Assembly (NCBI RefSeq): GCF_012516375.2
Contig: NZ_CP051204.2
Span: 7,192,001-7,256,000 of the forward strand
Length of the DNA stretch: 64,000 nucleotides
Origin: Chitinophaga oryzae
GTDB taxonomy: Bacteria > Bacteroidota > Bacteroidia > Chitinophagales > Chitinophagaceae
Reading direction: 5' to 3'
Position numbers and translations under genes: made by a program. The notes under the pieces are model-generated. The model searched no databases, was not told where the DNA came from, and saw nothing but the letters and a program-made list of their open reading frames with translations. Positions 24,845 through 52,325 of the stretch are shown here, in pieces (the first letter of the stretch is position 1; each line of letters opens with the position of its first letter).

Positions 24845-25019
24845 CATAAGAAATTAAAAACCAATAAATTAAATACAACAAAAGTAAACATGTTGCTAAA
24901 AGCAGAGTAAAATATGGTCGATTTGTCAAAACAAAATTACTTTGCAGAAATGCACCATATAACTCATGTTCATAAAAAATAAGCACATGGTTCATCTTTC
25001 GTCATTAAACAACAAACAT

Positions 25020-26646: not shown

Positions 26647-26668
26647 GGTCTCCCTCGACAGGGAGACC
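26647..26668. terminator. Hairpin between collagen-like lipoprotein and sigma gene
   Basis: A perfect 9-bp stem (GGTCTCCCT with AGGGAGACC) with a 4-nt loop. On the minus strand a T-run (TATTTTTTT) comes about 15 nt later, which is further than usual. It probably ends or weakens the long upstream transcript before the sigma gene. Confidence 0.5.
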
Positions 26669-26704: not shown

Positions 26705-27295
26705 CTAGTCTTGCAGGTTCAGCGCCTGCCGAACCTGGCTATAATTTTTCCAGTCCAGACTGCCGGCGGAACGGGCAGACACGCCACCCGGCACGATCAC
26801 GTAACGGTACTGATAACGTTTACCAGCGGTAGTTGTCTGGGTACTGGGATTACCATTGGAAATAAGATTGATGGATTTGGAAGCAGCCACGTAACGGATC
26901 AGCGTGCCAAACTCATCGGTGTAGGGCAACAGCACGATGCTCTGCTGGGAAGCCGTCCCGAGATTGATATACACGTTCACCAGCGCATTGGCCAATACGG
27001 CAGAATCCAGTTTAGGTGCATTGATAGCGGCAGCGTACAACACCGTGTCTACCGTGCCATCAGGATTGGTCACTGTCTGCGCGCCCTGAAAACGAACATC
27101 CAGCCAGCCGGAATAAATAACGTTGGCAGATCCCGGATCGCCCGGATCACCTTTAGGGCCCTGCGGGCCCTGTGTGCCATTGGAACCGGCAGGACCGGCA
27201 GGCCCCTGCGGACCGTCTTTAGAGCAGGACATGAAGCATACTACAACAGAAAGAATAAGTGCATAGGGCATGCAGCGCAATACTTGTTTCATCAT
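26705..27295 (-). CDS. Collagen-like lipoprotein
   Basis: A 196-residue predicted lipoprotein with lipobox FMSC (Cys24). Residues about 28-57 are ten Gly-X-Y triplets (GPQGPAGPAG...), the pattern of a collagen triple helix. The remaining 140 residues are a beta-rich domain (SGWLDVRF ... LPYTDEFGTLIRYVAASKSINL). It is the last gene of the T9SS-type surface run and starts 38 nt after a PorP/SprF gene. A short trimeric stalk on the cell surface is a reasonable reading, but the function is unknown. Confidence 0.85.
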   Translation of the reverse strand: MMKQVLRCMPYALILSVVVCFMSCSKDGPQGPAGPAGSNGTQGPQGPKGDPGDPGSANVIYSGWLDVRFQGAQTVTNPDGTVDTVLYAAAINAPKLDSAVLANALVNVYINLGTASQQSIVLLPYTDEFGTLIRYVAASKSINLISNGNPSTQTTTAGKRYQYRYVIVPGGVSARSAGSLDWKNYSQVRQALNLQD

Positions 27296-27333
27296 TACAA
27301 TTTGAGTTTAAGTGTTTATTTTGATTGATATTT

Positions 27334-28362
27334 CTACCATACATTCCGCGGACAGGTGTCCCCGTATTTGTTTCCCAGCAGGAATCCGATCATGATCTCA
27401 TGCGATCCCTTGCTGACAGTGTTCAGCGTCGACGCCGTATAGTCATACGAGTAACCGATATTGAAAGTGGAATTGATGTTCACCCCGAACATGCCCGCCA
27501 CGCCGTCATGCAGGCGATATGACGCCCCGGCCCAGAAACGGTCGCGGAACATCATGCGCGCATTAACATCCACGCTTACCGGCATAGCCGTAATGAACTT
27601 CACCATCACAGAAGGCAGCACGTTGATATCATCGTTGATCCATAAGCGGTAACCTGTCGTGAAGAAGAGGTGTGGCACCAGCTTCCCCTGGTACAGGCTG
27701 TCGCCCGCCAGCTTGCCGTTATCGAAACCGATTTTCTGCGGGATGATATTCTGTGCGGAAGCCCCCGCAAAGAAATCAGCGGCATACAGCCACAGGCCAG
27801 CGCCGATGTCCGGGCGCCAGCGGTTCAGGATACCCGTGCCGTTGATGGCGGGATCGTTAGGGTCCAGGAAACCTACCTTGCCGGCATCGAGGCTCACCTG
27901 CTGCATACCGAGCGACAAACCGGCACTCAGGCTCATCGTGGGCGACAGGTTGATATGATGCGCATAAGCGGCGCTGATGGCGAAGCGGTTGAGCGGGCCG
28001 GCCTTGTCATTCAGGATGGTCAGGCCTGCGCCGGGGTGCGGCGGAGGTGTCGTATAGTCGCGCCAGTAGGCTTTGCCCCGCGGGTTTTCTCCCTGCATCT
28101 CAAAACCTGTAGGCGAAGCACTGCTGTAATCCGATTTGCGCAACGGCCCGTGCACCGTCAGGTAGGTGGTCACCGGCGCACCATTCAATCCCGCCCATTG
28201 ATGCCGGTGGCTCAGGCGCAGGTCCCAGTAGTTTTCTATTCCTGCCACAGCAGGATTGATGATGAAAGGATTCATGATATACTGTGTGTAGTGCGGCTGT
28301 TGCTGTGCCTGCACCCACATCGCCATCAATCCTATCAGACCAGTTAACACAAACTTTTTCAT
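27334..28362 (-). CDS. PorP/SprF family type IX secretion membrane protein
   Basis: A 342-residue outer-membrane beta-barrel with a signal peptide (GLMAMWVQAQ) followed by QPHYTQYIMNPFIINPAVAGIENYWDLRLSHRHQWAG, the family signature. It ends in barrel-like strands (FNIGYSYDYT ... GSHEIMIGFLLG). SprF of Flavobacterium johnsoniae is needed for export of the type-B tagged adhesin SprB, so this protein probably handles one of the two type-B proteins encoded upstream. It is one of two paralogues in this run. Confidence 0.92.
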   Translation of the reverse strand: MKKFVLTGLIGLMAMWVQAQQQPHYTQYIMNPFIINPAVAGIENYWDLRLSHRHQWAGLNGAPVTTYLTVHGPLRKSDYSSASPTGFEMQGENPRGKAYWRDYTTPPPHPGAGLTILNDKAGPLNRFAISAAYAHHINLSPTMSLSAGLSLGMQQVSLDAGKVGFLDPNDPAINGTGILNRWRPDIGAGLWLYAADFFAGASAQNIIPQKIGFDNGKLAGDSLYQGKLVPHLFFTTGYRLWINDDINVLPSVMVKFITAMPVSVDVNARMMFRDRFWAGASYRLHDGVAGMFGVNINSTFNIGYSYDYTASTLNTVSKGSHEIMIGFLLGNKYGDTCPRNVW

Positions 28363-28396
28363 GACTCAATGTTTTAGGTTAAAAACAGGCCCGCTC

Positions 28397-30388
28397 CTAT
28401 TTCTTCAGTATCGTGAAGATGGTCCTTCTGTTCTGCTGTCTTCCTTCCGGGTTGTCAGATCCATCCGGCAGCGTATTCGGCGCTATCGGCATGGTGGCGC
28501 CATAACCTTTGTAGGTGAGGCGGCGCGCCTCGATTCCTTTTTCCACGAGATAGTCTACGCAACTTTTGGCGCGTGCTTCAGACAACCTTTGGTTGTAGCG
28601 TTTGCCACCTTTGCTGTCGGTATGGGCCGCCAGTTCAATCTCCATTTCGGGGTTCTCCTGCAGTAGTGTTACCAGTTTATCCAGCGACGCAGAGGATTCG
28701 GGTTTCAACGTGGCTTTATCATAGTCGTAGTACACATTTTCAAGCGTTACCGGCGACGGTGGCGTCACAATTGGGGTAAGGCACAGCGCCGGCGCGGTAA
28801 TAGCGGCGGTATCTTCATTTTGCGGCAGGTCGATATGTTGCGTTCCCTGCGTATAACCCACGGCGTTAGCAATGGCTACCAGCGGTTGATATTCATCCAG
28901 CGTAAAGGCATAGCTGCCATCGGCGCCGGTGCTGCGGGTGGTGACCACCTGGTGGCTAACGGTATCGATGATACGCACTTCTGCTCCCGCTACAGGCGTG
29001 TTACTGTTACACGCCACTACAACACCGCTCAGCTGCCGCGCAGGACGGGTTTTATGCAGGAAGAAAAGTTCGAGGCAACATTCCGCCGCCCTGTCTGTAC
29101 CCAGCAGCACATCGTCGAGCAGATTACGGTTGTTGCTCCTGCTGGCGAAATAAATGTCATCTTTAACGGAGTTGACCGGATAGCCCATATTCACCGGCGC
29201 CTGAAAGTTGCCCGGCTCTCCTTTGCTGCTAAAGAAATCATAGCCGCCCATGCCGGTCCTTCCATCGGTAGAAAACACCAGCGTGCGGGTAGCCGCATGA
29301 TAGTAGGGCGCCTGTTCATTATCCGCCGTATTGATCACCTCACCGAGATTAGCGGTGCTCACAGGCTTGCCGGTTTCATCCAGGGTGGCGTACCACAGGT
29401 CAAACCCTCCCTGGCCGCCGGGGCGGTCGCTGGAATACAGCAGGTGTTTGCCGTCAGGCAATACAAAAGGCTGCTGTGTATTGCTGCCCGGCACATTGAT
29501 CACCGCATCCAGCGCTACCGGCTCGCTCCAGCCGTCGCCGCTTTTACGGGACACCCAGAGGGAAGTAACTTTTTTACCATGATCTATCTGCCAGCGGGTA
29601 AGAAACAACTGCTGCCCGTCGGGCGTGATGCTGACAGCTCCCTGGTGCAGGGATTCAGGCTGAGCCACCGGCAGCAGTTTAATATTGGCAGCCTGTCCGT
29701 CTGTATAATCGGCGGTGTACACCCTGTTGACGAAACCTTTGTTTTTGGCAGGGTCCGGACGGGTGGAGGTAAACAGCAACGCACCATCGGCCGTCCATAG
29801 CGGCGCGTAGCTGGCGCCGGTGGTATTCAGTGCCGCCGGCGCTTTGCGTATTTCATAGAGGGAAAGGTCAGACCGTTTCAATTGAGCATTGACAAATGCG
29901 AGGTTATTCACTTCCCGTTCGGCAGCTGCACTGTAACCATCTTTGGAGCCGTAGCCCTGCAGAAAATTGCGGAACGCTTTCTCTGCGTCTTCATATTTAC
30001 CGAGGGCACGGAGGGAAACAGCATAATAATAGGCTGCCAGCGGGAAATTTTTCGCGTCGGCTTCGAGCGCCGCTTCGTAATGCGGCGCCGCCTTCTCGTA
30101 GTTATGCAGGTTGCGGTAGCTCTCCGCCAGTTTGTATACCGCCTGCTGCGCGCTGCTTACCGGCACCGTCGTTCTACGGCTGGCATTCACCGCCGCATAA
30201 GGTTTATAGGAGTCCTGCCGGAAAGATTTGTTCCGGGTGCCGAGGTATTTTTCATAATACTGCACCGCCGAACTATAGTCTTCCTTTTTATAGTATTGAT
30301 CGGCCGCTTTCAGGTAATCGTAGGTAAACTGCGCCTGTAGTGTCATAGCGGCCAGTAAAACGGATGCGGTAAATAATATTTTTTTCAT
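28397..30388 (-). CDS. OmpA-family protein with TPR and PD40 repeats (PorE-like)
   Basis: A 663-residue protein with signal peptide (VLLAAMTLQAQ). Residues about 20-150 are TPR helices (ADQYYKKEDYSSAVQYYEKYL). About 185-410 hold PD40/WD40-like beta repeats (GKHLLYSSDRPGGQGGFDLWYA). About 440-520 is a carboxypeptidase-regulatory-like fold. The C-terminal OmpA domain (about 545-663) has LAAHTDSKGGKRYNQRLSEARA for peptidoglycan binding. This layout is that of PorE and similar T9SS-associated anchors. Flanked by two PorP/SprF genes, it probably fixes the surface proteins to the cell wall. Confidence 0.92.
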   Translation of the reverse strand: MKKILFTASVLLAAMTLQAQFTYDYLKAADQYYKKEDYSSAVQYYEKYLGTRNKSFRQDSYKPYAAVNASRRTTVPVSSAQQAVYKLAESYRNLHNYEKAAPHYEAALEADAKNFPLAAYYYAVSLRALGKYEDAEKAFRNFLQGYGSKDGYSAAAEREVNNLAFVNAQLKRSDLSLYEIRKAPAALNTTGASYAPLWTADGALLFTSTRPDPAKNKGFVNRVYTADYTDGQAANIKLLPVAQPESLHQGAVSITPDGQQLFLTRWQIDHGKKVTSLWVSRKSGDGWSEPVALDAVINVPGSNTQQPFVLPDGKHLLYSSDRPGGQGGFDLWYATLDETGKPVSTANLGEVINTADNEQAPYYHAATRTLVFSTDGRTGMGGYDFFSSKGEPGNFQAPVNMGYPVNSVKDDIYFASRSNNRNLLDDVLLGTDRAAECCLELFFLHKTRPARQLSGVVVACNSNTPVAGAEVRIIDTVSHQVVTTRSTGADGSYAFTLDEYQPLVAIANAVGYTQGTQHIDLPQNEDTAAITAPALCLTPIVTPPSPVTLENVYYDYDKATLKPESSASLDKLVTLLQENPEMEIELAAHTDSKGGKRYNQRLSEARAKSCVDYLVEKGIEARRLTYKGYGATMPIAPNTLPDGSDNPEGRQQNRRTIFTILKK

Positions 30389-30415
30389 GAGATGTCTGTT
30401 ACATGTAGAGATGAA

Positions 30416-31420: not shown

Positions 31421-31452
31421 TTTGTGTCCGTGTTTTATGTGAATAATGTTCG

Positions 31453-34400
31453 TTATCGGATGATGGCTACATACCCTGACAGCGGCGCAAACCCGTTACG
31501 CAGGGTGATGACGTAATAGTAGGTGCCGACCGGCAGCGGGTTGCCTTTAAAGCTGCCGTCCCATGGCTGTGGATAACCGGTGGACTGGTACACCCGTTGG
31601 CCATAGCGGTTGAAGACCTCCACTTTGCTGTCCGGATAGTCGCTCAGGTTATAGATCACCCATTTATCATTGATATTATCGCCGTTGGGAGAGAACGCAT
31701 TCGGCGGCAGCACCGGTTTCAGCACTTTGACAGACAGCTGGTCTTTAGCAGTACAGTTGTGTTTACCGGTAGCAGTCAGCGTGTATACCTGGTCGTGCAT
31801 AGCCGGGATAGAGGGCGACAGCAGCGTCGGGTTCGGGAAATCGGCCGCTGGTTCCCACCGGAACTTCAGGTTCACGGAATCATTGGCCGTAGGCCTGAAA
31901 GTGATCACCGTTCCCTGCGGCACTACAAAAGACTGTCCGGCATCGATCACGGGTTGCAGGTACACCACCACTTTGCTGGTGAACGGTGCTGACGTGCAGC
32001 CCGCGGCGTTGGTCACTTTCAGTTTTACGCCGTATTCACCGGGCTCGGTATATTTCTTCACCGGGTTCTGCGCACTGGAAACAGAACCATCGCCAAACTC
32101 CCATGCCCAGGTGGTGATATTGCTTTTAGCGTCGGTACTCTGGTCGGTGAACGTGTTGTCTGTTCCCTGACATAAGGTGTCCGGAGATACTTTGAAAGAA
32201 GCGACCGGCTGGCCGAAGAAGGCTTCCATGCGCTTGGTGGCGCTGGCGCTGCAACCGAAGGAGGATGTGGCGGTCAATACTACATCAAACGGACCATAGG
32301 CGGTATAGTTATGCAGCGGGTCTTTCAGCGCGGAGGTAGCGCTGCCATCTCCAAAGTTCCACTGCCATGTAAGCGTTGACTTATCAGTAATTGTGCTCAG
32401 GTTGGTGAACTGCGCACTGCCTTCCGGCATACATATCGCCGCCGGCAACCGGAAGTTCACTTCAGGCAGCGGATGCACGCCCACCGTCATGGAGGCGGTA
32501 TCACTCAGGCACTGATGATCGCTGACAGCCACCAGTTTCACAGTGTAACTGCCCTCGGCGGTATACACCACGTTAAACGGTGTGTTGTTATTGACCTGTG
32601 TCTGCTGCCCTTTACCATCGTCCCATTTCCAGGTACTGATGACGCCACCGGTAATGGTGGACTGGTCAGTGATCAGGGCTGGCTGGCCAAGGCAGACATT
32701 GGCCGTAGCGGTAAAGGTGGCCGTGGGTTTAGGATATACCACCACGTCTGCCGCCACGGAGTCCGCACAGCCCGTGCTGGTATTGAACACATACCAGATT
32801 TTATGCGTGCCTGCTCCCGCCACGGAAGGCGTGAAATTACCGGAAGAATCGGTCGCCGGGCCTTTGTAGTAGCCCTTGCCGGTTACCCCGTTCTGTACGG
32901 TCGCATTGGCCACTTTGATACTTCCTTTCACGTTTACGCATACCCCGTTTACCGGTGCATATGCCAGTTGTGGTTTCAGCTTGAAGCTGGCAGTGACGGT
33001 CGTATCTTTCGTACAGCCTTTATCGGTAGTTACCTTGTATTTGATCGTATAGGTGCCAAACTTCGTATAGGCATGCGTAGGCGACGCCAGCAGCGAAGTG
33101 TTAGGATTGGCGGGCGTAGCGCCTGCGTCGCCAAAATCCCAGCTGTGGCCGGCCAGCGTTTGCGCATCGGGTACCGTGGCGGTACTGGTAAACTGCACCA
33201 CACCATTTACCGGCAGGCAATCGCCGGGGAAAGTAAATGCGGCATATGGCTTCGCGTATACCGTAATGGTTTTGGTAACGGTGTCACTGATACACAGATC
33301 GCTCACCTTTACCATATGCTTAACGGTATAGGATTTATGGCCGCCATATGTCATAGACTCCGGCGCGTTGGTAGTGGCTTTCTTTACAGAATCGTTGCCA
33401 AAGTCCCAGTACCATTCTTTCAGCGGGGTTGTCCCACCGTAGGTGGAATTATCTGTCAGCTTCACGGGCGCGCCTTCGCACAGCGACGGCACATCGCTCG
33501 TGAAATCAGCCACCGGTTTGGCTACAGCCTTCACCTGGAAAGAGGTGTCGCCCACGCAACCATCGGTGGAGATCACCGTCAGTTTCACGTTGGCCTGTCC
33601 CGGCTGGAAAGCATGGTGCACTTCGATGCCGCTGTCCAGCGCCGGGCCGGGGAACTCCCATTTCCAGCGGTCGATCTTATAATCGGGCTGATTGTTTTGT
33701 CCTTTGAAGATGGCGCTGTCCAGCGTACAACCCGAATAGGCATAGCTGGATATCGCACGGGGCTTAGGCTTCACGGAAATGGTATATCCCACCTTTTCTG
33801 TATTGGTACAGTTCTCAATGGAAGGATGGGTAGACATTACCGTAATATCAAATTCCCCGGTATTGGTGAATTTATAGGATCCGGGCAAGGTGTATTTATA
33901 GTATGTGATGCCGTTGATCACCACGGTGGCGGCGGGCACCGGCGCATTTACGGTCACATCTGTATTGGGTGTAATGGCCGCTCCCAGCAGGCTCAGTTTC
34001 CACACCATTTTGGTGGGCTTGTAAGCCATCAGGATAGACAGTTGCACCGGTGTTTGTGTACAGGTAAAATCATTGGTGGCTTTAGATGTATCGTACTCGT
34101 TGTGAATAGAACCCACTGCGTTCAGGTTATTGATCAGCGTACCGGCGTTGTAGCCATAACTTTCTACGCTGCCAAGACCGTAGGTGGTGGCGGTAAAGGC
34201 GGAATCGCTGGTCACAATACATTGTGCCTGCGCCGCGCTCCAGCGTTTCACCACCACAGAATAACCGGAGAGGTTGGGGTGCAGATAGGAGGTATTGAAC
34301 ACCGGGCTACCGTCGATCAACAACGATCCGATACCGCCGGTGGGGATAATCAGCGTGAGGTAGTTGACCGTAATAAACTCCCGGTTGTTACGGTAAAAAC

Positions 34401-35589: not shown

Positions 35590-35607
35590 TTTTTCATCTT
35601 GAAATGA

Positions 35608-35949
35608 TTATTGTTTGATGATCATCTTTGAGGTCCTTGTCCCATCTTCAAATAAGGCCCGCAACATATAAGGACCTTGTCCCAGTCCTGAAACCTGCAC
35701 CAGGTTGTCTTTCCCCGGCGCGGCTATTCTCTTCACCTGCCTGCCGTCCAGCGCATAGATCACCAGCTCACGCAGGTTTTTCACAGATTTCACGCGCACG
35801 GACACAGAGGCCGGGTTAGGATAGGCAGTGATAGACCGGGCGCTGTTGACCAGGCTGTCTATTCCCTGCCGGCAGCTGGTAGCTGCTGCACGGGGAAACG
35901 CCCCATGCAGCAACGCAGCTGTAATTATGAAAGCAAGCAAGTACTTCAT
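35608..35949 (-). CDS. Small exported protein consisting mainly of a T9SS type-A sorting domain
   Basis: From the ATG at 35949 the protein has 113 residues: a signal peptide (KYLLAFIITAALLHGAFPRAAA), a 15-residue spacer, and a type-A sorting domain (ITAYPNPASVSVRV ... ELVIYALDGRQVKRIAAPG ... GPYMLRALFEDGTRTSKMIIKQ). No cargo domain is present. The longer frame opening at 36087 runs into the upstream gene and is rejected. It sits 17 nt after the giant gene and 18 nt before the PKD protein gene. It may be a decoy or maturation partner, or a remnant of a larger protein. Confidence 0.8.
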   Translation of the reverse strand: MKYLLAFIITAALLHGAFPRAAATSCRQGIDSLVNSARSITAYPNPASVSVRVKSVKNLRELVIYALDGRQVKRIAAPGKDNLVQVSGLGQGPYMLRALFEDGTRTSKMIIKQ

Positions 35950-35966
35950 CACCTTACATTTTCGGG

Positions 35967-41900: not shown

Positions 41901-44900
41901 GTCCGCATTGGCCAGCAGTTGTACGCCGTAGCCATAAGAACCGCCACGGGCGTCGATCACAAGATTATCGAAAGTGAAATAGTCCGCGCCACGCAGTTTG
42001 ATCACGGCTCTTTCATTATCATCATCCGATGCGAACTTGATCGTGTTGCCATTACCGTTAAAAGTAACGGTATTGACAGCGGACATACCAGCGATGGAAT
42101 CGAGGACCAGCTGTTCGGCGTAAGGGCCGGAGCCGGCTACTACGTTGAATACCACCGGGCCTGCTATACCGCATTCCATCGCCGCTTTGGCAGCGTTAAA
42201 GCTGACAAAGTTAGTGGCGCCGGACGGTGCTCCCTTGTTGATGGTATAGGTACCACCAGGGAAAGCCGGGTTCACGGTGAGCAGTACCGGCGCACTGTAG
42301 GCTGTGTTGCCGCTGCAGGTGACTGCCACGCGGTAATACAGGGTAGCCGTCGATGTTATCGTGGTATCCGGATTGGTCATCGGGTTGCCGATGTTGGAAT
42401 AGGGGCCTCCTGCTGCACTGGCTGTTTGCCACTGGTAGCTCTGTCCCAGGCCGATGCTGTTGTTGATCAGGCTGAGTGACACCTTACGGTTGATACATAC
42501 CGGTGTGGTGCTCACGGTAGCCTCGCCGGGCGTGGGGGGCGCTGTACACGGACCGGGCGTAAACTCATAGGCGCCGATGTCCGGTGTGGTGGTGCTGCGG
42601 GTATTGCTGTTAATATCGACAGTGATGCCCGCCGGCAGCCCTTTGTTATCCACAGAAGCGCTGGTAGGCTGGTAGTTACCGGAAGCCACGCCTGCAAACA
42701 ACGGGTTGGAGGCCAGCGAAGCAGTATCCTGCAGGGAAGCGGTCTTCCAGTCAAGCAGTGAGCCGCGGTTAGCATTATAATAACCGGTAAAGCTGGTGCC
42801 GCCGGGTGCGGCCATATAATACAGGTTATTATTGGCATGGATAGTACCGGTGGTGGCACCGAAATATACAGCGTATTTGCTGCCGCCGCCACCACGGGTA
42901 ACCGCGATGAGGTTGTTGACAAATTCAATACCATCCGCTTTGGAGGTCTGATAGAAACCACGCGCCGTATAGGTGGTGGTGCTGGTAGAAGTACCGTCCA
43001 GCGCAATGGTATTATGGAAATACCATACGTTGTCGGAGCTGGAGTTGTAGATACCGTAAGCATCTCCCCTGCCGGTGAAGTTATAGATCAGGTTGTTGGA
43101 CACCACATTTTCCAGTTGAGACAACGCGTCCGTACCGGAAAAATAAATACCATAGCTGGCGCTCACGCTGGTGGGCGCGCCGCCAAAGGGATTACTGATG
43201 CGGTTGCGGGTAATATTGGCTTTGGTATTCAGGTTAGAGAAATTAATACCATAGAAGGTCGACACCGTAGCACGGGCCGGCCTGCTGATGATATTATTCT
43301 CTACTAACGTGTTAAATGATCCGCTGGCGTTCACCCCGGAGTTGTAGAATTCTGTGATCGTATTGTTGGTGATCTTATTGCTCATATTGGCCATAGTACT
43401 GCTTCCGGTGAGCACAATACCATAATAGCCACCCACAATTTTGTTGGAGGTGAAAGTATTGTTGTCGCACCTGGCATCACCGGAGGTGGTAGGTGATGAG
43501 TAGGAGCTGCTGATCACGATACCGGCATAGGCGGTACTGCTGGTAGATGTTGAATCCACCAGGATAGTGGAGTTCTTAATGGTATTAAAATCTGCGTCGT
43601 TGGTCAGGAAAACGCCCCAGCCATAACCGGAAGAACCGGTGCCGGTAGCTTTTATCACCAGGTTGTTAAAGGTGAAATAGTCGGCGTTATCCAGCTGGAT
43701 TACTCCCCTGTTGGCAGAGGTGCCGGCGAACTGCAGCGTGTCACCGTTACCGTTAAAGGTAATGGTATTGGTGGCAGAAGCGCCGGGTACGGGCTTCAGT
43801 AACAGCTGCTCCGTATAGGGGCCGCTGTTAGCCACCACGTTAAATGTCACGGGACCGCTGATACCGCATTTGAGATAGTTGTAAGCATCGTTGAAGGAAG
43901 CAAAGTTGGTACCTCCCGTAGGCGCTCCCTTATTGATGGTAAACGTACCGGACACCAGGGTGGGCGATGTTACGTTTACGCTGGCAGAGGTAGCGGACTG
44001 TGTGCTGGTAGTACAGGTAACGATGCAACGGTACCAGGTGGAGGCAGACTGCGTAGTAGTCAGCATGCTCTTGGTGGCTCCTGCGATGTTGGTCCAGGTA
44101 GTATTGTTGGCAGACTGCTGCCATTGATAAGTCAGCCCGGAAGCCACGGTGGCGCCGGTCAGCCGCAGATCAAAGGTACCGTTCAGACATACGGTGCTCA
44201 TACTGGAAACTGCGGTGCCTGCGGTGGGTGTACCGGTACAGGGCGTGGCAGGTATCCAGGAGAAGGTAATGTTCGGACGGGTGGTCATCGTACCGGTGTT
44301 GTCGGTTTCTATGGTACCGCAGAGGTTATTTTCGTTATCGGCGCGATAGGTATGCGAGCCGTTAAACGCCAATCCGGTGGTGAAGGCCACTTCGGGATTG
44401 TTGGAATAGAAGGTACCGGGATCGGTGACCGTAGCGCCGCTGCACACTTCCACCACAATGTTGTCTGTTCCGTTCCAGAAAAAGTTATTGCTGAAGGGAA
44501 AGTTGTTCACACCACTGAGGATGGTATAGTCCGCCGGGGTGCGTACCACGGTGGTGCCGGGCACCCAGGAGGTTTCATCGAGGGAGCTCACGGTAGTGCC
44601 GCCGATGCTGATCCCGTATCTTTCGATCACATCGGCAGTATTCAGGTTTTTAACGACGAACTTGATACCGGTAATATATCCCGGGGCCATACCGGCAGCG
44701 GAGAGCTCCGCTGCGGTAAACAGGTACTGTGCCCTGTTGCCTTCGAAATAGTCCTGTAACGGACAGGGATACCCGATATCGCTGTTCCCCGTGGTCCCGG
44801 TGCCGATGTTGATATCGGTCTGCGCCAGCAGACGACTGCTCAACATCAGCAGCATTCCGGCCACGAGGATGGTTTTGTGAATAAACGAAAGCGTATAATT

Positions 44901-44906
44901 TCTCAT
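35967..44906 (-). CDS. Giant T9SS type-B surface protein with three repeated beta-helix modules
   Basis: From the chosen start (MRNYTLSFIHKT) the protein has 2979 residues with signal peptide ending SSRLLAQ. The frame is open to 45026 but that overlaps the upstream gene. After about 225 residues come three homologous modules of about 560 residues (roughly 225-785, 785-1345, 1345-1925). Each has an Ig-like part (TYQWQ ... YYRC) then a right-handed beta-helix opening GTYTINKGAPSG.TNF.SF and CGIAGPV.FNV. An IgGFc-binding-like domain follows (about 2085-2400), then a PKD module (WNWNFGDTTY), an Ig-like module and a type-B sorting domain (NTFTPNNDGKNDV ... FDQWGEKVFES). A likely adhesin or polysaccharide-binding surface fibre. 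Confidence 0.92.
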   Translation of the reverse strand: MRNYTLSFIHKTILVAGMLLMLSSRLLAQTDINIGTGTTGNSDIGYPCPLQDYFEGNRAQYLFTAAELSAAGMAPGYITGIKFVVKNLNTADVIERYGISIGGTTVSSLDETSWVPGTTVVRTPADYTILSGVNNFPFSNNFFWNGTDNIVVEVCSGATVTDPGTFYSNNPEVAFTTGLAFNGSHTYRADNENNLCGTIETDNTGTMTTRPNITFSWIPATPCTGTPTAGTAVSSMSTVCLNGTFDLRLTGATVASGLTYQWQQSANNTTWTNIAGATKSMLTTTQSASTWYRCIVTCTTSTQSATSASVNVTSPTLVSGTFTINKGAPTGGTNFASFNDAYNYLKCGISGPVTFNVVANSGPYTEQLLLKPVPGASATNTITFNGNGDTLQFAGTSANRGVIQLDNADYFTFNNLVIKATGTGSSGYGWGVFLTNDADFNTIKNSTILVDSTSTSSTAYAGIVISSSYSSPTTSGDARCDNNTFTSNKIVGGYYGIVLTGSSTMANMSNKITNNTITEFYNSGVNASGSFNTLVENNIISRPARATVSTFYGINFSNLNTKANITRNRISNPFGGAPTSVSASYGIYFSGTDALSQLENVVSNNLIYNFTGRGDAYGIYNSSSDNVWYFHNTIALDGTSTSTTTYTARGFYQTSKADGIEFVNNLIAVTRGGGGSKYAVYFGATTGTIHANNNLYYMAAPGGTSFTGYYNANRGSLLDWKTASLQDTASLASNPLFAGVASGNYQPTSASVDNKGLPAGITVDINSNTRSTTTPDIGAYEFTPGPCTAPPTPGEATVSTTPVCINRKVSLSLINNSIGLGQSYQWQTASAAGGPYSNIGNPMTNPDTTITSTATLYYRVAVTCSGNTAYSAPVLLTVNPAFPGGTYTINKGAPSGATNFVSFNAAKAAMECGIAGPVVFNVVAGSGPYAEQLVLDSIAGMSAVNTVTFNGNGNTIKFASDDDNERAVIKLRGADYFTFDNLVIDARGGSYGYGVQLLANADKNRITHSRILTDNTSSSSSVAGVVINGADASTSSGTNNLCDSNLVRGNKIDGGYYGVIIYGASTGSPAGNRIDSNAISEFYSYGVYLSNAENTIVDQNDIFRTARSSVSYSNYGVSVSSKGDGNIVSNNRIHGLFNGATGTTNSFYGIEFTSADATAANPAKIINNVIYDIRGNGTQRGFYNYSSDFTLYYHNTVALNDAVNTGSAEATGIYQSSTVAGVQFLDNILDISRAGGGSRTGISIAASAEFKSDYNDIFVKSSRSTAYTGNNGTNYATLADWRAGAKLDSNSLAVEPVFADPSAGNFAPVISPLDNSGRPAGVTKDILGVTRSTTTPDMGAFEINIPECTSPPVAGNATVDPTTPICMGTAIKLDLVGNSKGGHQTYQWQVSANAAGPWKYVSDTQYVSVYNTIAGAEKYYRCAVVCSNRDTVYSTPVKVNLNDPLLAGTYTINPAQPSSTTNFQSFAAAVSKLECGIAGPVLFLAANGTYTEQLTMRHIPGASAVNRVTFSSASGNAADVVLTYAGTSARNYVLKLDSVDYVTWRKITFKPTGTTYARAVEFAKKASFDSLQLCAITLPVTTSSGTNSAGVYANNCLGQGNVITGNTITEGGNGVYWLNSYGDNMSPGVTVDSNTITRSYSYGIYAEYVNRLVAQKNTITLSGTLAGTAYGIYADDCDTAIALVGNKVNINNTGSKGYAIYLTYCQPGAGAPGRVTGNEIYARTANTGELRGITLTYSNRISVNNNVVSIHTTASNSYGVYSESGNNLNYLNNSILNTSTSSGNNYAAYFSHTSSSASPVKVRNNIFAADTGRTMYVANPNFLNSDYNTLYTRGSVLVRQNTPGTSYGTLAAYRTGSGLDANSLVYKPAFVSPADLHPVLTDPEVWAIHGRGVQVAGNDKDIDGKPRPVTLQEGVPDMGAYEFLPTSVPPALPAFPAAPAAGVTQTFMFGTDTVTKVTWNDATLPSNMTVRRYSGVKPPNIAPGTDFMYFYTDVDVTPASGVYNFNIQQFYLDPWQGYIKRQKDIRLAMTDSTDKWKTDSLSKVNDITNVITDSTLHYFDKFTGLNGGTSAPQQLQPADSSNRGTRFWVGYGHHQFFTGDNSQQMVLYLNAKDSSNVTVRVNGTAWERTYHIPANKTITTETLPKGGMNDARLLEEGWSDRGISIESDVPIVAYAHIYGSASSGASMLLPVGTYGYDYYALTSRQNYSTDTYSWFYVVADYDNTTLEITPSVPTLSGRPANQTFTVTLNKGEVYQVLGALQAGSDGYDVSGSHVRSIVNSDGKCFPVAFFSGSSRTGIGCGNSTGSSGDNLIQQNFPSQAWGKKYLTAPTSIDDDAASFMTNIFRVLVKDPATVVKRNGITLTGLINNRFYQFESNTADYIEANQPVMVAQYMSSSGSCDNTNGDGDPEMIYVSPLEQGIKQVGLYRNTVESINTNYLTLIIPTGGLSSLRIDGSNVFDHTYPHPNYQGYTVVIKRWDADAAQCNVVADSAFTAITYGLGSVESYGYNAGTLVKNLNILPAFSNVLNPSSGSNNTYTCVKTPFRFSMLIPVKPTKLTWKLSAVKNLTPAVDVVQNNPVPKDSLIANERTYYRFVLPDEYVFSAPGTYHVPIQISHPDIESCNNTFEAILTMKVIPAPVVNFTSNYSGCVGDVAQFTGSATTSNNVGISTWNWNFGDTTYAYRKDTTKQFKYPGIHKVKLSIVAAEGCIGDTTKDVEVYTPGVAAVVKDSLTVCSGSDASLAVKDPEAGVLYNWYDAPAGGNLLFTGNVYTITAVTVSGTYYLEAINHGCPGATRAKVVVHVLPLLTTPVVKVDTVGVNLIRFKWAAVPNATSYEVSTDGGLTWTQPSSGREGLEHVISGLQPSQSVKLLVKVRGCEDKISDPAEGKTLPDGIYIPNTFTPNNDGKNDVLKVYGYIINKLHIAIFDQWGEKVFESNSQDMGWDGTYKGKTLPSGVYIYVCHLVLKDGSTLEKKGVINLIR

Positions 44907-44949
44907 ATAGAAAAACATTTGCTGGTTTTCAGAAGGGGTTAATCTTTTA

Positions 44950-46251
44950 TCAGAACACCCAGGTGATCCATGATTTACCGTCTTTGGCGCTGACCATGTC
45001 ATAGGTGGTGGCGCCTGTCTGTACAAGGAAGAAACCTGTCTGTTCCGCCATCAGCGCACGCGTACGCAACAACGGCGTAGGGTCCGGCGGCGGGTCGCCA
45101 AACATGCCCCCGTCGTTGAAGATCACACGGCCATCACTGGTGAAGGTGGGGGTAGCGTGCAGTACGCCATACATCAGCGTGGGCTGGCCTTCGTCCGGCA
45201 CGATGATGCCAAAGGCATCGATACCGGAACCCGGACCGGCTGCTTCAGGCCAGAAAGTGGCTGCGATGTAATCCGGCAGCGTATGCAGCCCGTAAGCGTC
45301 ATCCACCCCGTTGACATGGAAGCCTCTTTCAGCAATCCAGTAACGGCGCTGATTAAGCGCATACTGGTACCAGCGCCTGGGCGCAGCCGCGTCTATGGCC
45401 AGCGGCCTTACTGTTTCGGAGATACTGGCAGGCTGCCCGTTGATGGTGCCTTTAACGGCGCCGTCTTCAAACCTGATGTTATCGAAGTGGCTGATAGTAG
45501 TGGTACCATCGGAAAACGCCGGCGACAGGGCAATGCCTTTAGCCGTATAGTAGTAACCGGTAGTTGCGGTTTTTACCTGTCCGCCTGCCACCCAGGTAAA
45601 GGTGATGCGGTGGGTCAGCGTATTGACATCCACATCGTAGCGCCCCGTACCGGTGGTCAGCTTATGGAAATAGGTAAGTATGTTCCGAACGCTGTCGATG
45701 CTACGGTTGATATGCTGCTGGTAATAATCTGCCTGTTCCTGCTGAGTGGCCTTTACCAATATGGCCCGGCTCCTGTTGAAACGGCCGGTCAGTACCATCG
45801 TGTCGCCGGTCATGCCGTTGATGGCAAACTCGAAGTCCGATCCCAGCCCTCTGCCGTATTCGCCGCCGTTCTCGCCCGCATCGGGATCACAGAGCACGTG
45901 CAGGTAAGAGTAGGTATCGAACAGTAGGCTCGGCTGCTGTAATGCTTTAAGCCGCCAGCTGCTTTCTTTGGCAGTGACAGTGGAAGAAGCTTCAAAGTCG
46001 CTGTACATCTGTACCCGGTTCGAGTCGTTGAACCGGAAATAAAAGCTGTACACCGACTTGGGAGAGCCGCCCGGATACACCATGGCTTTCCAGCCGTAAG
46101 GTGCGTGGGTCAGTATCTGCTGATATCGCTGTAAGGTGTCGTTGAGACGCTCATCCGGCGATTTGCTAAACAGCGGGTCCGATTCTTTCCTGCAGGAACA
46201 GAACCCTGCAAGGACCAGTAATAAGTACAAAAGTTTCTTTCTCATACCCAA
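44950..46251 (-). CDS. DUF4302 lipoprotein
   Basis: A 433-residue predicted lipoprotein (LLVLAGFCSCRKE near residues 12-22). The N-terminal part (SPDERLNDTLQRYQQILTHAPYGWKAMVYP) is the signature of DUF4302 proteins, which are found beside SusC/SusD and zinc-peptidase lipoprotein genes. Biochemical function is unknown. It starts 4 nt after the metallopeptidase stop and is followed 43 nt later by the giant surface protein, tying uptake and surface genes into one unit. Confidence 0.85.
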   Translation of the reverse strand: MGMRKKLLYLLLVLAGFCSCRKESDPLFSKSPDERLNDTLQRYQQILTHAPYGWKAMVYPGGSPKSVYSFYFRFNDSNRVQMYSDFEASSTVTAKESSWRLKALQQPSLLFDTYSYLHVLCDPDAGENGGEYGRGLGSDFEFAINGMTGDTMVLTGRFNRSRAILVKATQQEQADYYQQHINRSIDSVRNILTYFHKLTTGTGRYDVDVNTLTHRITFTWVAGGQVKTATTGYYYTAKGIALSPAFSDGTTTISHFDNIRFEDGAVKGTINGQPASISETVRPLAIDAAAPRRWYQYALNQRRYWIAERGFHVNGVDDAYGLHTLPDYIAATFWPEAAGPGSGIDAFGIIVPDEGQPTLMYGVLHATPTFTSDGRVIFNDGGMFGDPPPDPTPLLRTRALMAEQTGFFLVQTGATTYDMVSAKDGKSWITWVF

Positions 46252-46255
46252 GTGG

Positions 46256-47155
46256 TTAATACAATAGCTTGTTGATTTCTCTTCTGGTGCGGGATTGCAG
46301 GCTGTAAAAATCGATGTGCCATACGGTCTGGTAGTAGCTGACCACCATGGCTTCCTTGCGGCGGAGCCGCGCTTTGGCTTCTGCCTGCGGCGTACCGTTG
46401 ATACTGTATCCCGGAGGTATGCTGTTCACGATCTTGTCGAATCCGGCCCTGCCTTCTACGAGCATGGTAGATATCATCTCCACAAAATCTTCATCGTAAC
46501 CGGACATGGCATAAGGTGTTACAAAGCCGTCCCTGCGGGCGGACATATCATCGATATTGTTCCAGTTGGCCGTATACAGACCGGCGGATATGCGTTTGAA
46601 CTCCACCGGGTACATCACTGTCTGGTGCAGGATATGGCCAAATTCATGTTCAATGACATGGAACATCTGTTTTACGTTGGCAGAGTCGCCGGGTTTATAA
46701 TTGGGCATGTCGCGGGTAACGAAATCGTTGACGAGGTACAGCACTACTTTGCGGCCGCCTTCCGCGGTACCCAGCGTGATGGTGCCGTTTTCGTTCCAGC
46801 TGGCGCTACCGCTGAGGATAAAATACTTCGGGCAGTAGCGGCGGAAGAACAACTCACCGGCTTCCGCGATATAAGTGCTCATCCATACTTTTTTAATAGC
46901 GCTCATCACCGGGATGATCTTGTCCTCACGGGGAGGCACCAACGTTTTATTCAGTTCAAATTCAAACTGGTCCCATTTGTATTTTACGGCGATATTATAG
47001 GGTACGGTAAGCGTATCAAAAAGCCAACGGTCCAGCGGGCCTTTCACCCAGGTGTCGCCTCCCAGTCCGGGGATGTCGTCTACCTTGCCCAGGTCATCCT
47101 TCTTGCTGCATGACATCAGCAGCAGAAAGGACAAAGCGAGAAGAAAAAGTTTCAT
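46256..47155 (-). CDS. Zinc metallopeptidase lipoprotein (SusD-associated, Mx1 type)
   Basis: A 299-residue lipoprotein, lipobox LMSC (Cys16). The zinc motif HEFGH occurs in VIEHEFGHILHQ near residues 160-172, followed by a downstream DEDFVEMISTML segment that could supply the third ligand. It matches the substrate-import-associated zinc metallohydrolase family encoded next to SusC/SusD pairs. A likely job is trimming a peptide or protein ligand at the cell surface before import. The substrate is not known. Confidence 0.9.
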   Translation of the reverse strand: MKLFLLALSFLLLMSCSKKDDLGKVDDIPGLGGDTWVKGPLDRWLFDTLTVPYNIAVKYKWDQFEFELNKTLVPPREDKIIPVMSAIKKVWMSTYIAEAGELFFRRYCPKYFILSGSASWNENGTITLGTAEGGRKVVLYLVNDFVTRDMPNYKPGDSANVKQMFHVIEHEFGHILHQTVMYPVEFKRISAGLYTANWNNIDDMSARRDGFVTPYAMSGYDEDFVEMISTMLVEGRAGFDKIVNSIPPGYSINGTPQAEAKARLRRKEAMVVSYYQTVWHIDFYSLQSRTRREINKLLY

Positions 47156-47182
47156 ATGCAGCGATTTTGGTTTGGTTGATTA

Positions 47183-48670: not shown

Positions 48671-48680
48671 AGGTCCATTT

Positions 48681-51600
48681 TTAAATACCAACTTTTATTG
48701 ACAGGGTGAATTGCTTCTGAATAGGCTGGGCTACGCCGCCGGAGTTAAAAAATTCCGGGTCCTGGCCATGCAGGTTCTTATCGGCATAGATGAGCCAGGG
48801 GTTGATAGCGGCGCCGCTCACCGACATGCTGTTGAAACCAACACGGCGGATGAGGGAAACGGGCAGCTGATAAGTCAGTGATACGGTTTTCAACCGGATA
48901 AAATCACCTTTAGCCACCCGTTCAGTGGAATAGTTGTAGTTGTTGTACGGATAAGCGCCCCGGATCAGTGTTTGCTCATAGGCATCCAGGATGGAAGGCA
49001 CGCGGGTGGTCCCTTCATCTCCCGGCATTACCCAGCGGTCGTAAAACTCTTTGGGCATGGCATCCAGATCGGAATAGGCGGTTTTAAAAGCCGGGTACAA
49101 GCGGATTTTGTTTCCCCATTGATAGGTAAAGAAGACATTGAGTGAAAGGGCTTTATAGCGGAAAGTATTGGAGAAACCGCCGGTCACCGGGGGATCTACC
49201 GGTCCTTCATACACCAGTTGGGCTGTTTTGAGGTCCTGCAGGTTAACATCGGGACTTACCACACCATCCTGGTTGATGAAGGAGGGCATGCCTGTTTTCG
49301 GAGAAAGGCCTTTGTACTGTAAGGAAAACAGGCTATGCACCGGGTATCCTTCTTTGTTGCCGCCTTCCGCTACTACCAGATCAAAAATGGCCGGGATGTT
49401 CTTGGCATTGGTGATCTTATTGGTATTGTAACCGAAGGTGATGTTGGCTTTCCAACCCCAGTCCTTTTTACGCACCACATCCCCTCCGATCAGCAGTTCC
49501 ACTCCTTTGGAAGTCATATCGGCATAGTTGGCCGCTTTGTACATTTCGCCACCTATGCCGGATGTTTTGATAATACTGATAAGATCGAAGCTCTTGCGGG
49601 TGTAGAAATCCAGTGAGATATTGAGCCGGTTGTTGAAAAAACCGCCGTCCAGTCCGAGGTTGGTAGTATAGAGCTTTTCCCAGGTGAGATCATCATTTTG
49701 CAGGTGCGCGAGGGCGATCACAGATTCCACTTCATTGAGGTGCGGCCTGCGGGTGTTGATAGTCTGGAAAACGATATTGGAATTGGTAGCGGGGCCCATG
49801 CTGGCGGTCAGACCGTAGCTGGCGCGCAGCGTGAGGTAGTTGAGCCAGTTCACTTTCTGCAGGAAGGGTTCCTGCTCCATGTTCCACGAACCGGCCACGC
49901 TCCAGGTGGGCAGCCAGCGGGCTTTGCGGGATTGTCCCAGCCTGTTGGAGCCGTCGTAACGACCGGTAGCGGTGAGGTTGTATTTGTTGTTGTAGGCATA
50001 GGTGCCGGAAGCATAAAAGGCCGCGAAGCGGTCATAGTCGCGGCCCATGCCGTAGTAAGGGAAATTGGACTCGATGGTCTGCTTGAGGATACGGTAATCG
50101 ACAAACGGTGTTCCTCCGTTTTCGTACTGATAGCCGTAGCCTGTGTTGGATGCGTTCTGCCGGTCGGCATACTTCACCTGTTGTCCTACCAGCAGGTTGA
50201 TGTTATGCTTCTGTGCAAACGTGTCGGCATAGGTAAGGCCGTTACGGAAATCGAAGTTCATCAGCTGGTCTTCCGTGCGGTTGTAGAAACCGCCGGCGGG
50301 CAGTACGATGACGGGCTGCGCGTCCGGATCATCAGGATTGCGGTAGAGGAATTTGTTGTTCCGCGCAATGGTGGCGTTGCCGGCGGCGCGGTATGCGTTG
50401 GCCATGTTGGCGTTCTCCGTGATCTGGTGTTCGCGGGAGGATTTTACATAGCGGATGGCGCCGGTAAATTCGTAACGGATGTTACGGGTGAGCCTCCAGC
50501 CGAGATCGCCCTGGAGGCGCAGGTCCATCATGTTCAGGTTGAGGGAGTTGTTGCGCAGCTCGTTGATGATGTTGAACGGTGCGAAGTTTCTCCGGAAGTA
50601 CTCGAGGTGGCCATTCTGATCATAGGCGGTGAGGGTACGGCTGGTATTGAGCGAGTAGCTGAACGGGTTGATGTCAAAGTCACGGTCATATTGTCCTTCC
50701 ACCGGATTACTGCTGCGGGTTAGTGCTCCCGGCGCTTTTTGCTGACGCACAGATGCCAAAGCGGAGAAACCGGCGGTCAGCCGGTCAGAGAATTTATAGG
50801 TATTACGGTAATTGAGGGTATAGCGGTTTACTTTATCGGCGAGTGTCCAGCCATTGTCACTGTAGAAGCTGGTGGAGAAATAGGACTGTGATTTATCGGT
50901 ACCGGAAGAGATGCTGAGCGAATGTTCCTGAACAAAGTTGTTGCGGAACAGCAGGCCAAACCAATCGGTATTGGCGTTGGCATAGCGCAGCAGGAAGGCT
51001 TTCATGGCGGCAGGATCGTTCTGCACGGGGAAATTGCCGTCACCGTCTGCATCCAGTGATTCGTAAAGTTTGCCGAAAACGCCGATATCACCACGGGAAA
51101 GGATATCCGAAGTGAGGATGCCTTTACGTTCCAACTCCGCCAGCACAGACATCTGCTGGCCGGAGTTCATGATATTGAAATTGTTATAGTTCGGTTTCAG
51201 CTGGGTGCTGAAGTTGCCGCTGTAGGCAATAACGGGTTTGCCTGCACGACCTTTTTTGGTGGTGATCACCACGACGCCGTTCATCGCGCGGGCGCCGTAC
51301 AATGCGGTAGCGGCGGCGTCTTTCAGGATATCAAAACTTTCAATATCATTGGCGTTGAGGCCGGCCACCGCCGAACCCAGCAAAGTGGTGGGATCTCCGC
51401 TGGACAGCTGATCGTTGGAGATGTTCACCACATCTTCCAGCACCACGCCGTCTACCACCCAGAGCGGTTTGTTGTCGCCGTTGATGGAAGTAGCGCCGCG
51501 CACCCTTACTTTCGGCGCGGTGCCGAAGGTACCGGACACGTTCTGTATGGCGACACCGGCTACGCGGCCTTCGAGCATACGGCTGACATCTGTTATCCCG

Positions 51601-52325
51601 TCAATTTTTACATCGTCGCCTTTGAGGCGGGTAGCCGCTCCGGAGAATTTACTTTTATCGATGCTTTGAAAGCCGGTGACCACCACTTCCTGGAGGCGGG
51701 TGGGTTTTTCTTTCATAACGATGGTGAGGTTGCCGCTTTTGAATTCGCTGGAGTGAACTTCTTCCATTTTATACCCGGTGAAGTTGAACACCAGTACAGC
51801 GTCGCCGGGCACTCTGCGGATTTCAAATTCACCTTTCGCGTTGGTGGTGGTACCCCTGGAAGATCCTTTCACGATGATGGTCACACCAGGCAACGGTTCT
51901 TTCTTTTCAGAGGTTACCACACCTTTCACGTCCGTGAAGCGCGGCGTGACCTGCCGTGTAGTACTGACAGTAGCGAGGGCAGGTACTTTCCGGGAGGCGT
52001 CGTGTTTAATGACGATACGATCGTAGATAACGCTATAGGACAGGGCGTAGGGCGTTAATATTTTGTGCAGCAGATCACCGACTTTTTCATTACGGGCGGA
52101 GATGCTGATTTTGTTGGCATTCAGTACTTCGCTGCCTACGTATACAAAAGATACTTCCGCGAGGTTGCTGATTTTCTCCAGTGCATCTTTCAGTACCACA
52201 TCGTGCAGGTGGAGGGTTATTTTTTTGTCGAGCGCATCCTGGAGATCCACGGCGCCCGCCTGCAGGTGGAACAGCGACAGGAAGAGCGTCAGACAACAAA
52301 TGTAGTATCGGGTTTTACTATGCAT
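48681..52325 (-). CDS. SusC/RagA TonB-dependent receptor with STN domain
   Basis: A 1214-residue outer-membrane receptor. After the signal peptide comes an STN domain (about 28-108), which links such receptors to FecR/sigma signalling. Then a carboxypeptidase-regulatory-like domain (about 130-195, VKGVVTSEKKEPLPGVTIIVKG), a plug (about 215-345, with ILKDAAATALYGARAMNGVVVITTKKG) and a 22-strand barrel. The ECF sigma and FecR genes directly upstream fit the STN domain. It forms the import pore with the next gene's SusD. Confidence 0.96.
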   Translation of the reverse strand: MHSKTRYYICCLTLFLSLFHLQAGAVDLQDALDKKITLHLHDVVLKDALEKISNLAEVSFVYVGSEVLNANKISISARNEKVGDLLHKILTPYALSYSVIYDRIVIKHDASRKVPALATVSTTRQVTPRFTDVKGVVTSEKKEPLPGVTIIVKGSSRGTTTNAKGEFEIRRVPGDAVLVFNFTGYKMEEVHSSEFKSGNLTIVMKEKPTRLQEVVVTGFQSIDKSKFSGAATRLKGDDVKIDGITDVSRMLEGRVAGVAIQNVSGTFGTAPKVRVRGATSINGDNKPLWVVDGVVLEDVVNISNDQLSSGDPTTLLGSAVAGLNANDIESFDILKDAAATALYGARAMNGVVVITTKKGRAGKPVIAYSGNFSTQLKPNYNNFNIMNSGQQMSVLAELERKGILTSDILSRGDIGVFGKLYESLDADGDGNFPVQNDPAAMKAFLLRYANANTDWFGLLFRNNFVQEHSLSISSGTDKSQSYFSTSFYSDNGWTLADKVNRYTLNYRNTYKFSDRLTAGFSALASVRQQKAPGALTRSSNPVEGQYDRDFDINPFSYSLNTSRTLTAYDQNGHLEYFRRNFAPFNIINELRNNSLNLNMMDLRLQGDLGWRLTRNIRYEFTGAIRYVKSSREHQITENANMANAYRAAGNATIARNNKFLYRNPDDPDAQPVIVLPAGGFYNRTEDQLMNFDFRNGLTYADTFAQKHNINLLVGQQVKYADRQNASNTGYGYQYENGGTPFVDYRILKQTIESNFPYYGMGRDYDRFAAFYASGTYAYNNKYNLTATGRYDGSNRLGQSRKARWLPTWSVAGSWNMEQEPFLQKVNWLNYLTLRASYGLTASMGPATNSNIVFQTINTRRPHLNEVESVIALAHLQNDDLTWEKLYTTNLGLDGGFFNNRLNISLDFYTRKSFDLISIIKTSGIGGEMYKAANYADMTSKGVELLIGGDVVRKKDWGWKANITFGYNTNKITNAKNIPAIFDLVVAEGGNKEGYPVHSLFSLQYKGLSPKTGMPSFINQDGVVSPDVNLQDLKTAQLVYEGPVDPPVTGGFSNTFRYKALSLNVFFTYQWGNKIRLYPAFKTAYSDLDAMPKEFYDRWVMPGDEGTTRVPSILDAYEQTLIRGAYPYNNYNYSTERVAKGDFIRLKTVSLTYQLPVSLIRRVGFNSMSVSGAAINPWLIYADKNLHGQDPEFFNSGGVAQPIQKQFTLSIKVGI

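What the first reader, a model, noticed from the sequence alone, without database searches (positions are those of the whole stretch)
26705..52325. 25.6-kb gene run joining SusCD uptake to T9SS adhesin export and anchoring
From susC to the collagen-like lipoprotein eleven genes follow on one strand with gaps of 45 nt or less. The run starts after a sigma/FecR pair and ends at a hairpin. It combines ligand import, a zinc peptidase, two type-B tagged adhesins, two PorP/SprF translocon partners and an OmpA anchor. One STN-type receptor signal could switch on the whole surface machine, for example for capture and digestion of prey or host protein. I know the separate parts but not this combined unit.
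Basis: partly seen in the sequence, partly recalled or inferred. Interest (0 to 1): 0.72.

Follow-up and report, generated by a model that had tools for sequence, protein, structure and literature searches.

The report
SusCD importer operon carrying T9SS adhesins
In soil bacteria of the genus Chitinophaga, a nutrient-import operon contains, in its middle, a set of genes for displaying giant sticky proteins on the cell surface; the arrangement is kept in many species of the genus, which suggests that catching and importing a substrate are switched on together.

Summary
Eleven genes from susC to a collagen-like lipoprotein run on one strand with gaps of 10-38 nt, behind an ECF sigma/FecR pair and before a hairpin supported by covariation. 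The window is Chitinophaga. In 79 genomes of its genus, 62 of 64 giant adhesin genes have the zinc-peptidase gene about 9 kb upstream on the same strand. In 18 of 20 giant loci read in full the ten core genes keep order and strand.

Two things change the reading. Each half also lives alone: susC-susD-peptidase-DUF4302 (core order of the Capnocytophaga/Riemerella iron capture system) and the adhesin-PorP-PorE block. And the collagen-like lipoprotein goes with the uptake half: in 17 of 81 adhesin-free genus loci (a lower bound) it follows DUF4302 at about 2 kb from the peptidase, so the adhesin block sits inside that operon type. Elsewhere the same slot holds a lone PorP gene, or PorP-PorE-PorP with a secreted M43 protease and two other type B proteins.

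Best reading: a SusCD importer whose sigma/anti-sigma switch also drives a T9SS type B display module. Co-transcription, regulation and ligand are inferred; prey capture is unsupported. New variant of known kinds.

The parts
53847..54446 (-). ECF sigma factor (199 aa)
   Evidence: Sigma70_r2/r4_2 over cut-off
52743..53741 (-). FecR-type anti-sigma factor (332 aa)
   Evidence: FecR + FecR_C over cut-off
48681..52325 (-). SusC/RagA TonB-linked porin with STN-like N-terminal extension (1214 aa)
   Evidence: TIGR04056 639.6 bits, cut-off 368; STN only 14.5 bits
47183..48670 (-). SusD-like lipoprotein (ATG at 48670; longest ORF to 48691)
   Evidence: SusD-like_3, SusD_RagB over cut-off
46256..47155 (-). 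Zinc metallohydrolase lipoprotein, Peptidase_Mx1 / LP_HExxH_w_tonB (299 aa), motif HEFGH
   Evidence: PF15890 269 bits, TIGR04549 303 bits; HExxH in the 17 copies listed
44950..46245 (-). DUF4302 lipoprotein (431 aa), predicted lipocalin-like parts
35967..44918 (-). Giant T9SS adhesin (about 2983 aa): beta-helix regions, IgGFc_binding, PKD, Ig_7, type B CTD
   Evidence: TIGR04131 59.8 bits, cut-off 35
35608..35949 (-). 113-aa protein, signal peptide plus T9SS type A tail; accessory
   Evidence: TIGR04183 34.5 bits on the 159-aa ORF; found in 5 of 18 joined loci
31453..35580 (-). Second T9SS adhesin (1375 aa): IgGFc_binding, PKD repeats, type B CTD
   Evidence: TIGR04131 71 bits
30416..31420 (-). 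PorP/SprF shuttle 1 (334 aa), predicted partner of the giant
   Evidence: TIGR03519 190 bits; pairing inferred
28397..30388 (-). PorE-like TPR-PD40-CarboxypepD-OmpA protein (663 aa), no lipobox seen by eye
   Evidence: (NF052230 298 bits, cut-off 600)
27334..28362 (-). PorP/SprF shuttle 2 (342 aa), predicted partner of the second adhesin
   Evidence: TIGR03519 265 bits; stand-alone pairs
26705..27295 (-). Collagen-like lipoprotein (196 aa); last gene of the run, family shared with the uptake half
   Evidence: aligned in 15 loci; follows DUF4302 in adhesin-free loci
26647..26668 (-). Terminator-like hairpin, 9 pairs, loop of 4
   Evidence: covariation
26029..26607 (-). Second ECF sigma gene after the hairpin
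   Evidence: present in 13 of 18 joined loci
52326..52742 (-). 417-nt FecR-susC gap, the likely promoter region of the run

Best explanation
A SusCD uptake operon of the iron-capture-system layout (SusC, SusD, HExxH metallohydrolase, DUF4302, with a collagen-like lipoprotein as last gene) that carries a T9SS type B adhesin-display module between DUF4302 and the collagen-like gene. Proposed working: ligand on SusC signals through its STN-like extension to FecR, which frees the ECF sigma factor; it transcribes the run from the FecR-susC gap to the hairpin. The core T9SS (SprA encoded elsewhere) exports both adhesins; shuttle PORP1 takes the giant and PORP2 the second adhesin, and the PorE-like protein ties them to the cell wall as static anchors. 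The adhesins hold a macromolecule, matrix or cell at the surface; the lipoprotein peptidase and DUF4302 release or present a product; SusCD imports it with TonB. Shown: anatomy, conservation, nesting, hairpin, co-occurrence of SusC extension and FecR. Inferred: co-transcription, signalling, shuttle pairing, surface position, ligand.
For: 62 of 64 giants in 79 genus genomes have Mx1 8632-9674 bp upstream of their IgGFc domain on the same strand; 64 of 68 shorter IgGFc genes lie within 6 kb downstream of a giant. Ten core genes in order on one strand in 18 of 20 giant loci read (one cut in susC by its contig end). DUF4302-giant gap 18-52 nt in 13 of 16 loci. A collagen-like gene lies 15-25 kb downstream of Mx1 in 62 of 62 joined loci, and within 3.5 kb (1982-2197 bp) in at least 17 of 81 adhesin-free ones (the list it uses is capped); 15 of those 17 and two g15 loci, fetched because of it, read SusC-SusD-Mx1-DUF4302-collagen-like. 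The slot holds PORP2 alone in G137, and in G284 PORP1-PORE-PORP2, a type A-tailed Peptidase_M43 and two type B proteins with SprB repeats. SusC extension with adjacent FecR: 22 both, 18 neither, 0 mixed. G033 lost most of susC, susD, DUF4302 and half of Mx1 but keeps sigma, FecR, susC start, adhesins and collagen-like gene. SprA in the genome. PorE-PorP-type B complex and proposed static anchoring are published (PMC9143113, PMC12618676).
Against: No transcript, protein or ligand data. Both halves occur alone, and 64 of 81 adhesin-free Mx1 loci show no listed collagen-like gene nearby; G000b and G010 have none. Gaps before the giant of 239-434 nt (G284, G148, G226) or 836 nt (G061) leave room for a promoter there. 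STN is below the Pfam cut-off. Two joined loci (G066a, G001a) have no sigma/FecR. G024b has both adhesins with no uptake genes. Promoter scans were near chance level and decide nothing.
Confidence: 0.6

Rival explanations
1. Co-expression without joint function: the adhesin block landed behind a regulated promoter and is kept there because both are needed in the same habitat, while adhesion and import act on different things.
For: Both modules occur without each other in many genomes. Three of five adhesin-block gene trees do not group all joined loci.
Against: The same slot is used by different T9SS gene sets, and the union persists in 62 of 64 giant loci although giants are only 48-68% identical to the window's outside its closest relative.
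Confidence: 0.25
2. Two transcription units: an internal promoter near the DUF4302 end drives the adhesin block; the neighbourhood is only genomic.
For: Longer gaps before the giant in G061, G284, G148, G226.
Against: 18-52 nt gap in 13 of 16 loci; the adhesin block is followed by a collagen-like gene of the kind that ends adhesin-free uptake operons.
Confidence: 0.15
3. Iron piracy: the uptake half is an iron capture system and the adhesins hold iron-bearing proteins or cells.
For: PMC5429918 (passages) equates a Riemerella SusC-RagB-zinc metallohydrolase run with icsC-D-E; log2 fold change 3.06-3.81 in low iron. 16 of 16 named loci, 7 of them Capnocytophaga, show SusC-SusD-Mx1-DUF4302.
Against: In B. 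thetaiotaomicron a DUF4302 gene (BT3961) and the nearby SusCD pair (BT3958-59) are listed with negative fold change in the iron table (PMC10434189). Soil bacteria; C. canimorsus itself is not among the loci; icsF = DUF4302 is inferred from order only; the original ICS paper was not available.
Confidence: 0.2
4. Gliding: the adhesins are mobile SprB-like gliding adhesins, and the importer is incidental.
For: [quoted passage not shown] SprB repeats in the alternative cargo of G284.
Against: PMC12618676 (discussion) says mobile substrates are not encoded with a PorE-like gene, whereas this locus has one.
Confidence: 0.1

Closest known systems
Iron capture system (ICS, icsA/C-H) of Capnocytophaga canimorsus and its Riemerella homologue
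   Same: SusC, SusD and TIGR04549-type zinc metallohydrolase in the same order; DUF4302 follows in Capnocytophaga loci
   Different: Chitinophaga loci add a collagen-like lipoprotein and the T9SS adhesin block; iron link untested
PorE-PorP-PG1035 complex (P. gingivalis) and Fjoh_3952-3951-3950 type static type B adhesin operons (F. johnsoniae)
   Same: Type B CTD adhesin, PorP/SprF shuttle, PorE-like protein side by side
   Different: Two adhesins and two shuttles, embedded in a SusCD operon; PorE-like protein scores below the PorE cut-off and shows no lipobox
Polysaccharide utilization loci (Sus-like)
   Same: SusC/SusD pair with ECF sigma/FecR control
   Different: No glycoside hydrolase or lyase family found in the run; a peptidase instead
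SprB-SprF gliding adhesin pair
   Same: Giant type B protein with SprF-family partner
   Different: PorE-like gene present, suggesting static anchoring

Membership tests
ICS-type SusCD uptake operon | SusC-SusD followed by TIGR04549 zinc metallohydrolase | tested here: met
   TIGR04056 and TIGR04549 over cut-off, order as in Capnocytophaga loci
ICS-type SusCD uptake operon | icsF, icsG, icsH homologues | tested here: inconclusive
   DUF4302 has the position of icsF; no ics sequences were at hand; icsG/H not identified
ICS-type SusCD uptake operon | Iron-limited induction and iron uptake from transferrin | not testable with these tools
   needs experiment
T9SS type B display module (PorE-PorP-type B) | Type B CTD on the cargo | tested here: met
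   TIGR04131 over cut-off on both adhesins
T9SS type B display module (PorE-PorP-type B) | PorP/SprF-family shuttle adjacent | tested here: met
   TIGR03519 over cut-off on both
T9SS type B display module (PorE-PorP-type B) | PorE model NF052230 over its cut-off | tested here: not met
   298.2 bits, cut-off 600; so PorE-like, not PorE
Polysaccharide utilization locus | SusC/SusD pair | tested here: met
Polysaccharide utilization locus | Carbohydrate-active enzyme in the run | tested here: not met
   Pfam scan of the run's genes shows no glycoside hydrolase or lyase family over cut-off; beta-helix regions of the giant are of unknown activity
FecIRA-type cell-surface signalling | ECF sigma plus FecR anti-sigma | tested here: met
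FecIRA-type cell-surface signalling | STN domain on the receptor | tested here: inconclusive
   14.5 bits, cut-off 28.4; extension co-occurs with FecR in 22 of 22 loci that have either

The most novel reading that the evidence does not exclude
The gap between DUF4302 and the collagen-like gene of ICS-like SusCD operons is a loading slot for interchangeable T9SS display modules (giant pair with PORP1-PORE-PORP2; the same three genes with a secreted M43 protease and SprB-repeat proteins; lone PORP2), giving a modular capture-and-import machine in which one TonB-receptor signal turns on both the surface proteins and the importer that uses what they catch.
Probability: 0.3. Interest if true: 0.8.

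Novelty: new variant of a known kind. Interest (0 to 1): 0.6.

Why it matters
TonB-dependent import and T9SS surface display are usually studied as separate systems in Bacteroidota (general knowledge). A conserved operon that nests one in the other makes a direct test possible: whether substrate sensing by a SusC receptor controls which adhesins the cell shows. It also offers a function hypothesis for type B adhesins, IgGFc_binding domains and DUF4302, and a set of natural variants (adhesin-free, uptake-deleted, swapped cargo) for comparison.
Full report
What is there. The window is bases 7192001-7256000 of a single-contig 8.36-Mb genome. The nearest Mx1 homologue is 96% identical, from Chitinophaga varians, so the organism is a Chitinophaga. 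On the - strand follow: ECF sigma, FecR, SusC, SusD, Peptidase_Mx1 lipoprotein, DUF4302 lipoprotein, a 2983-aa adhesin, a 113-aa type A tail protein, a 1375-aa adhesin, PorP/SprF, a PorE-like protein, a second PorP/SprF, a collagen-like lipoprotein, a hairpin, and a second ECF sigma gene. Gaps inside the run from susC are 10-38 nt; FecR and susC are 417 nt apart.

Conservation in the genus. I searched 79 genomes for Peptidase_Mx1 (77 of 79 with a match) and IgGFc_binding (52 of 79). Giants (open frame above 1450 aa) number 64 in 48 genomes; 62 of 64 have Mx1 upstream on the same strand, 8632-9674 bp from their IgGFc domain; 64 of 68 shorter IgGFc genes lie within 6 kb downstream of a giant (Mx1 rows of at least 178 bits). 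The reverse does not hold: 81 of 143 Mx1 genes have no giant. I read 17 of the 64 giant loci in full, and 3 loci of another genus, g71. A g71 contig has the length of the Longitalea arenae contig listed, so g71 is probably Longitalea. In 18 of these 20 (15 genus, 3 g71) the ten core genes are present, on one strand and in order, with G284 cut in susC by its contig end. The two exceptions are G033 and G024b. DUF4302-to-giant gaps are 18-52 nt in 13 of 16 loci; G061 has 836, G284 239, and G078 overlaps by the start chosen; G148 and G226 have 434 and 285 by ORF starts.

Exceptions. G033 has sigma, FecR and the start of susC, then a frame that runs into the C-terminal half of Mx1 with the HExxH residues replaced, then the complete adhesin block, collagen-like gene and second sigma gene; SusD and DUF4302 are gone. 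The adhesins there still lie behind the susC promoter region after loss of the importer. G024b has the two adhesins without uptake genes.

The halves apart. PF15890 is in 25 of 395 phylum genomes and 50 of 244 family genomes. The adhesin block or part of it occurs without Mx1 and DUF4302 in 10 of 10 loci that I picked in other genera from the capped list because they had a giant (G081, G092, G137, G145, G190, G194, G231, G233, G243, G290). Four Chitinophaga genomes (G007, G009, G026, G028) have only the second adhesin and PORP2.

Nesting. Of 62 joined loci 62 have a listed copy 15-25 kb downstream of Mx1; of 81 adhesin-free Mx1 genes at least 17 have one 1982-2197 bp downstream, 14 of them in genomes without any giant. 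I fetched 15 of these 17: all 15 read SusC-SusD-Mx1-DUF4302-collagen-like with no adhesin gene; two g15 loci (G190, G260) show the same with sigma and FecR. Other adhesin-free loci, such as G000b and G010, have no collagen-like gene. So the adhesin block occupies the place between DUF4302 and the collagen-like gene of one operon type. In G137 only PORP2 lies there, while the giant, second adhesin, PORP1 and PorE-like genes lie on another contig without PORP2 in the stretch read. In a second G284 locus the slot holds PORP1-PORE-PORP2, then a Peptidase_M43 protein with a type A tail and two type B proteins with SprB repeats.

History. A concatenated tree of SusD, Mx1 and DUF4302 puts most joined loci (with G137 and both G284 loci) in one clade (100/100) and the 15 adhesin-free genus loci in another (100/100), but joined G148 and G226 fall beside the latter with support 87.8/83. 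Giant and second-adhesin trees group g71 with adhesin-only G145 (1.00) and Chitinophaga with adhesin-only G190 and G024b (0.83 and 0.97); the PORP2 tree also separates g71 from Chitinophaga. Against this, PORP1 and PORE trees group g71 with the Chitinophaga joined loci (0.98 and 0.99). One joining with later exchange or loss, or several joinings, both remain possible.

Regulation. In 50 SusC rows beside Mx1, the SusC N-terminal extension and an adjacent upstream FecR go together: among 40 with more than 2 kb upstream, 22 have both, 18 neither, 0 one only; of the other 10, nine have both and one (G665) is cut. Among the 18, G508 has a split SusC and L210 has a sigma gene but no FecR upstream. 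The loci are related, so this is not 40 independent cases. It supports FecIRA-like signalling although Pfam STN is sub-threshold. The hairpin after the collagen-like gene is conserved with compensatory changes: 99% of cells paired against 88.9% in shuffles. A T-run follows within 2 nt in G066b, G044, G016 and G017 and later in the window. The hairpin marks the likely end of the run; the second sigma gene beyond it is in 13 of the 18 joined loci, and absent in the two without sigma/FecR and in g71 (the G148 and G226 'SIG2' rows are the upstream sigma gene).

Comparison. PMC9143113 (abstract and discussion read) shows a PorE-PorP-type B complex; PMC12618676 (abstract, discussion, one results section) reports cognate shuttle pairs and five F. 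johnsoniae operons with PorE homologue, type B substrate and SprF-like protein, and proposes static anchoring. PMC5429918 (passages) describes the ICS and its Riemerella homologue, raised in low iron; PMC10434189 (passages) lists a DUF4302 gene and a SusCD pair of B. thetaiotaomicron with negative fold change. The original ICS paper is known to me only by recall. Ten searches of the held library listed no paper that describes the union.

Verdict. What it captures and whether one promoter drives it are open.

Noticed in passing
window 24966-25997 (+): 343-aa protein joining a RhuM domain and a Fic domain.
   Followed up: no
window 55086-63998 (-): A polysaccharide-type locus directly upstream: SusC, SusD, DUF4959/5126/5000, DUF4998 and GH88.
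   Followed up: partly
window about 54976-55090: Long near-perfect inverted repeat of about 30 nt per arm between the GH88 gene and the sigma gene (by eye).
   Followed up: no
G000:C1 7590024-7590716, L125: Second Mx1 operon in the same genome with sigma, FecR, SusC, SusD and two DUF4302 genes, no adhesins.
   Followed up: partly
L137-L138 (G081) and L143-L144 (G243): A different SusC/SusD locus with an alginate-lyase-like and an esterase-like gene (judged by eye) ends about 470-490 nt before the giant in two other genera.
   Followed up: partly
L101-L102 (G033): Natural deletion joins the start of susC to the end of Mx1; the adhesin block stays complete.
   Followed up: partly
G148:C39, G226:C40 and G284:C145: A collagen-like gene lies about 5.7-5.9 kb upstream of Mx1 instead of downstream.
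   Followed up: no
L236 (G284:C198): Alternative cargo in the same slot: Peptidase_M43 with type A tail and two type B proteins with SprB repeats.
   Followed up: partly
window 35608-35949 (-): 113-aa protein that is little more than a signal peptide and a T9SS type A tail; in 5 of 18 joined loci.
   Followed up: partly
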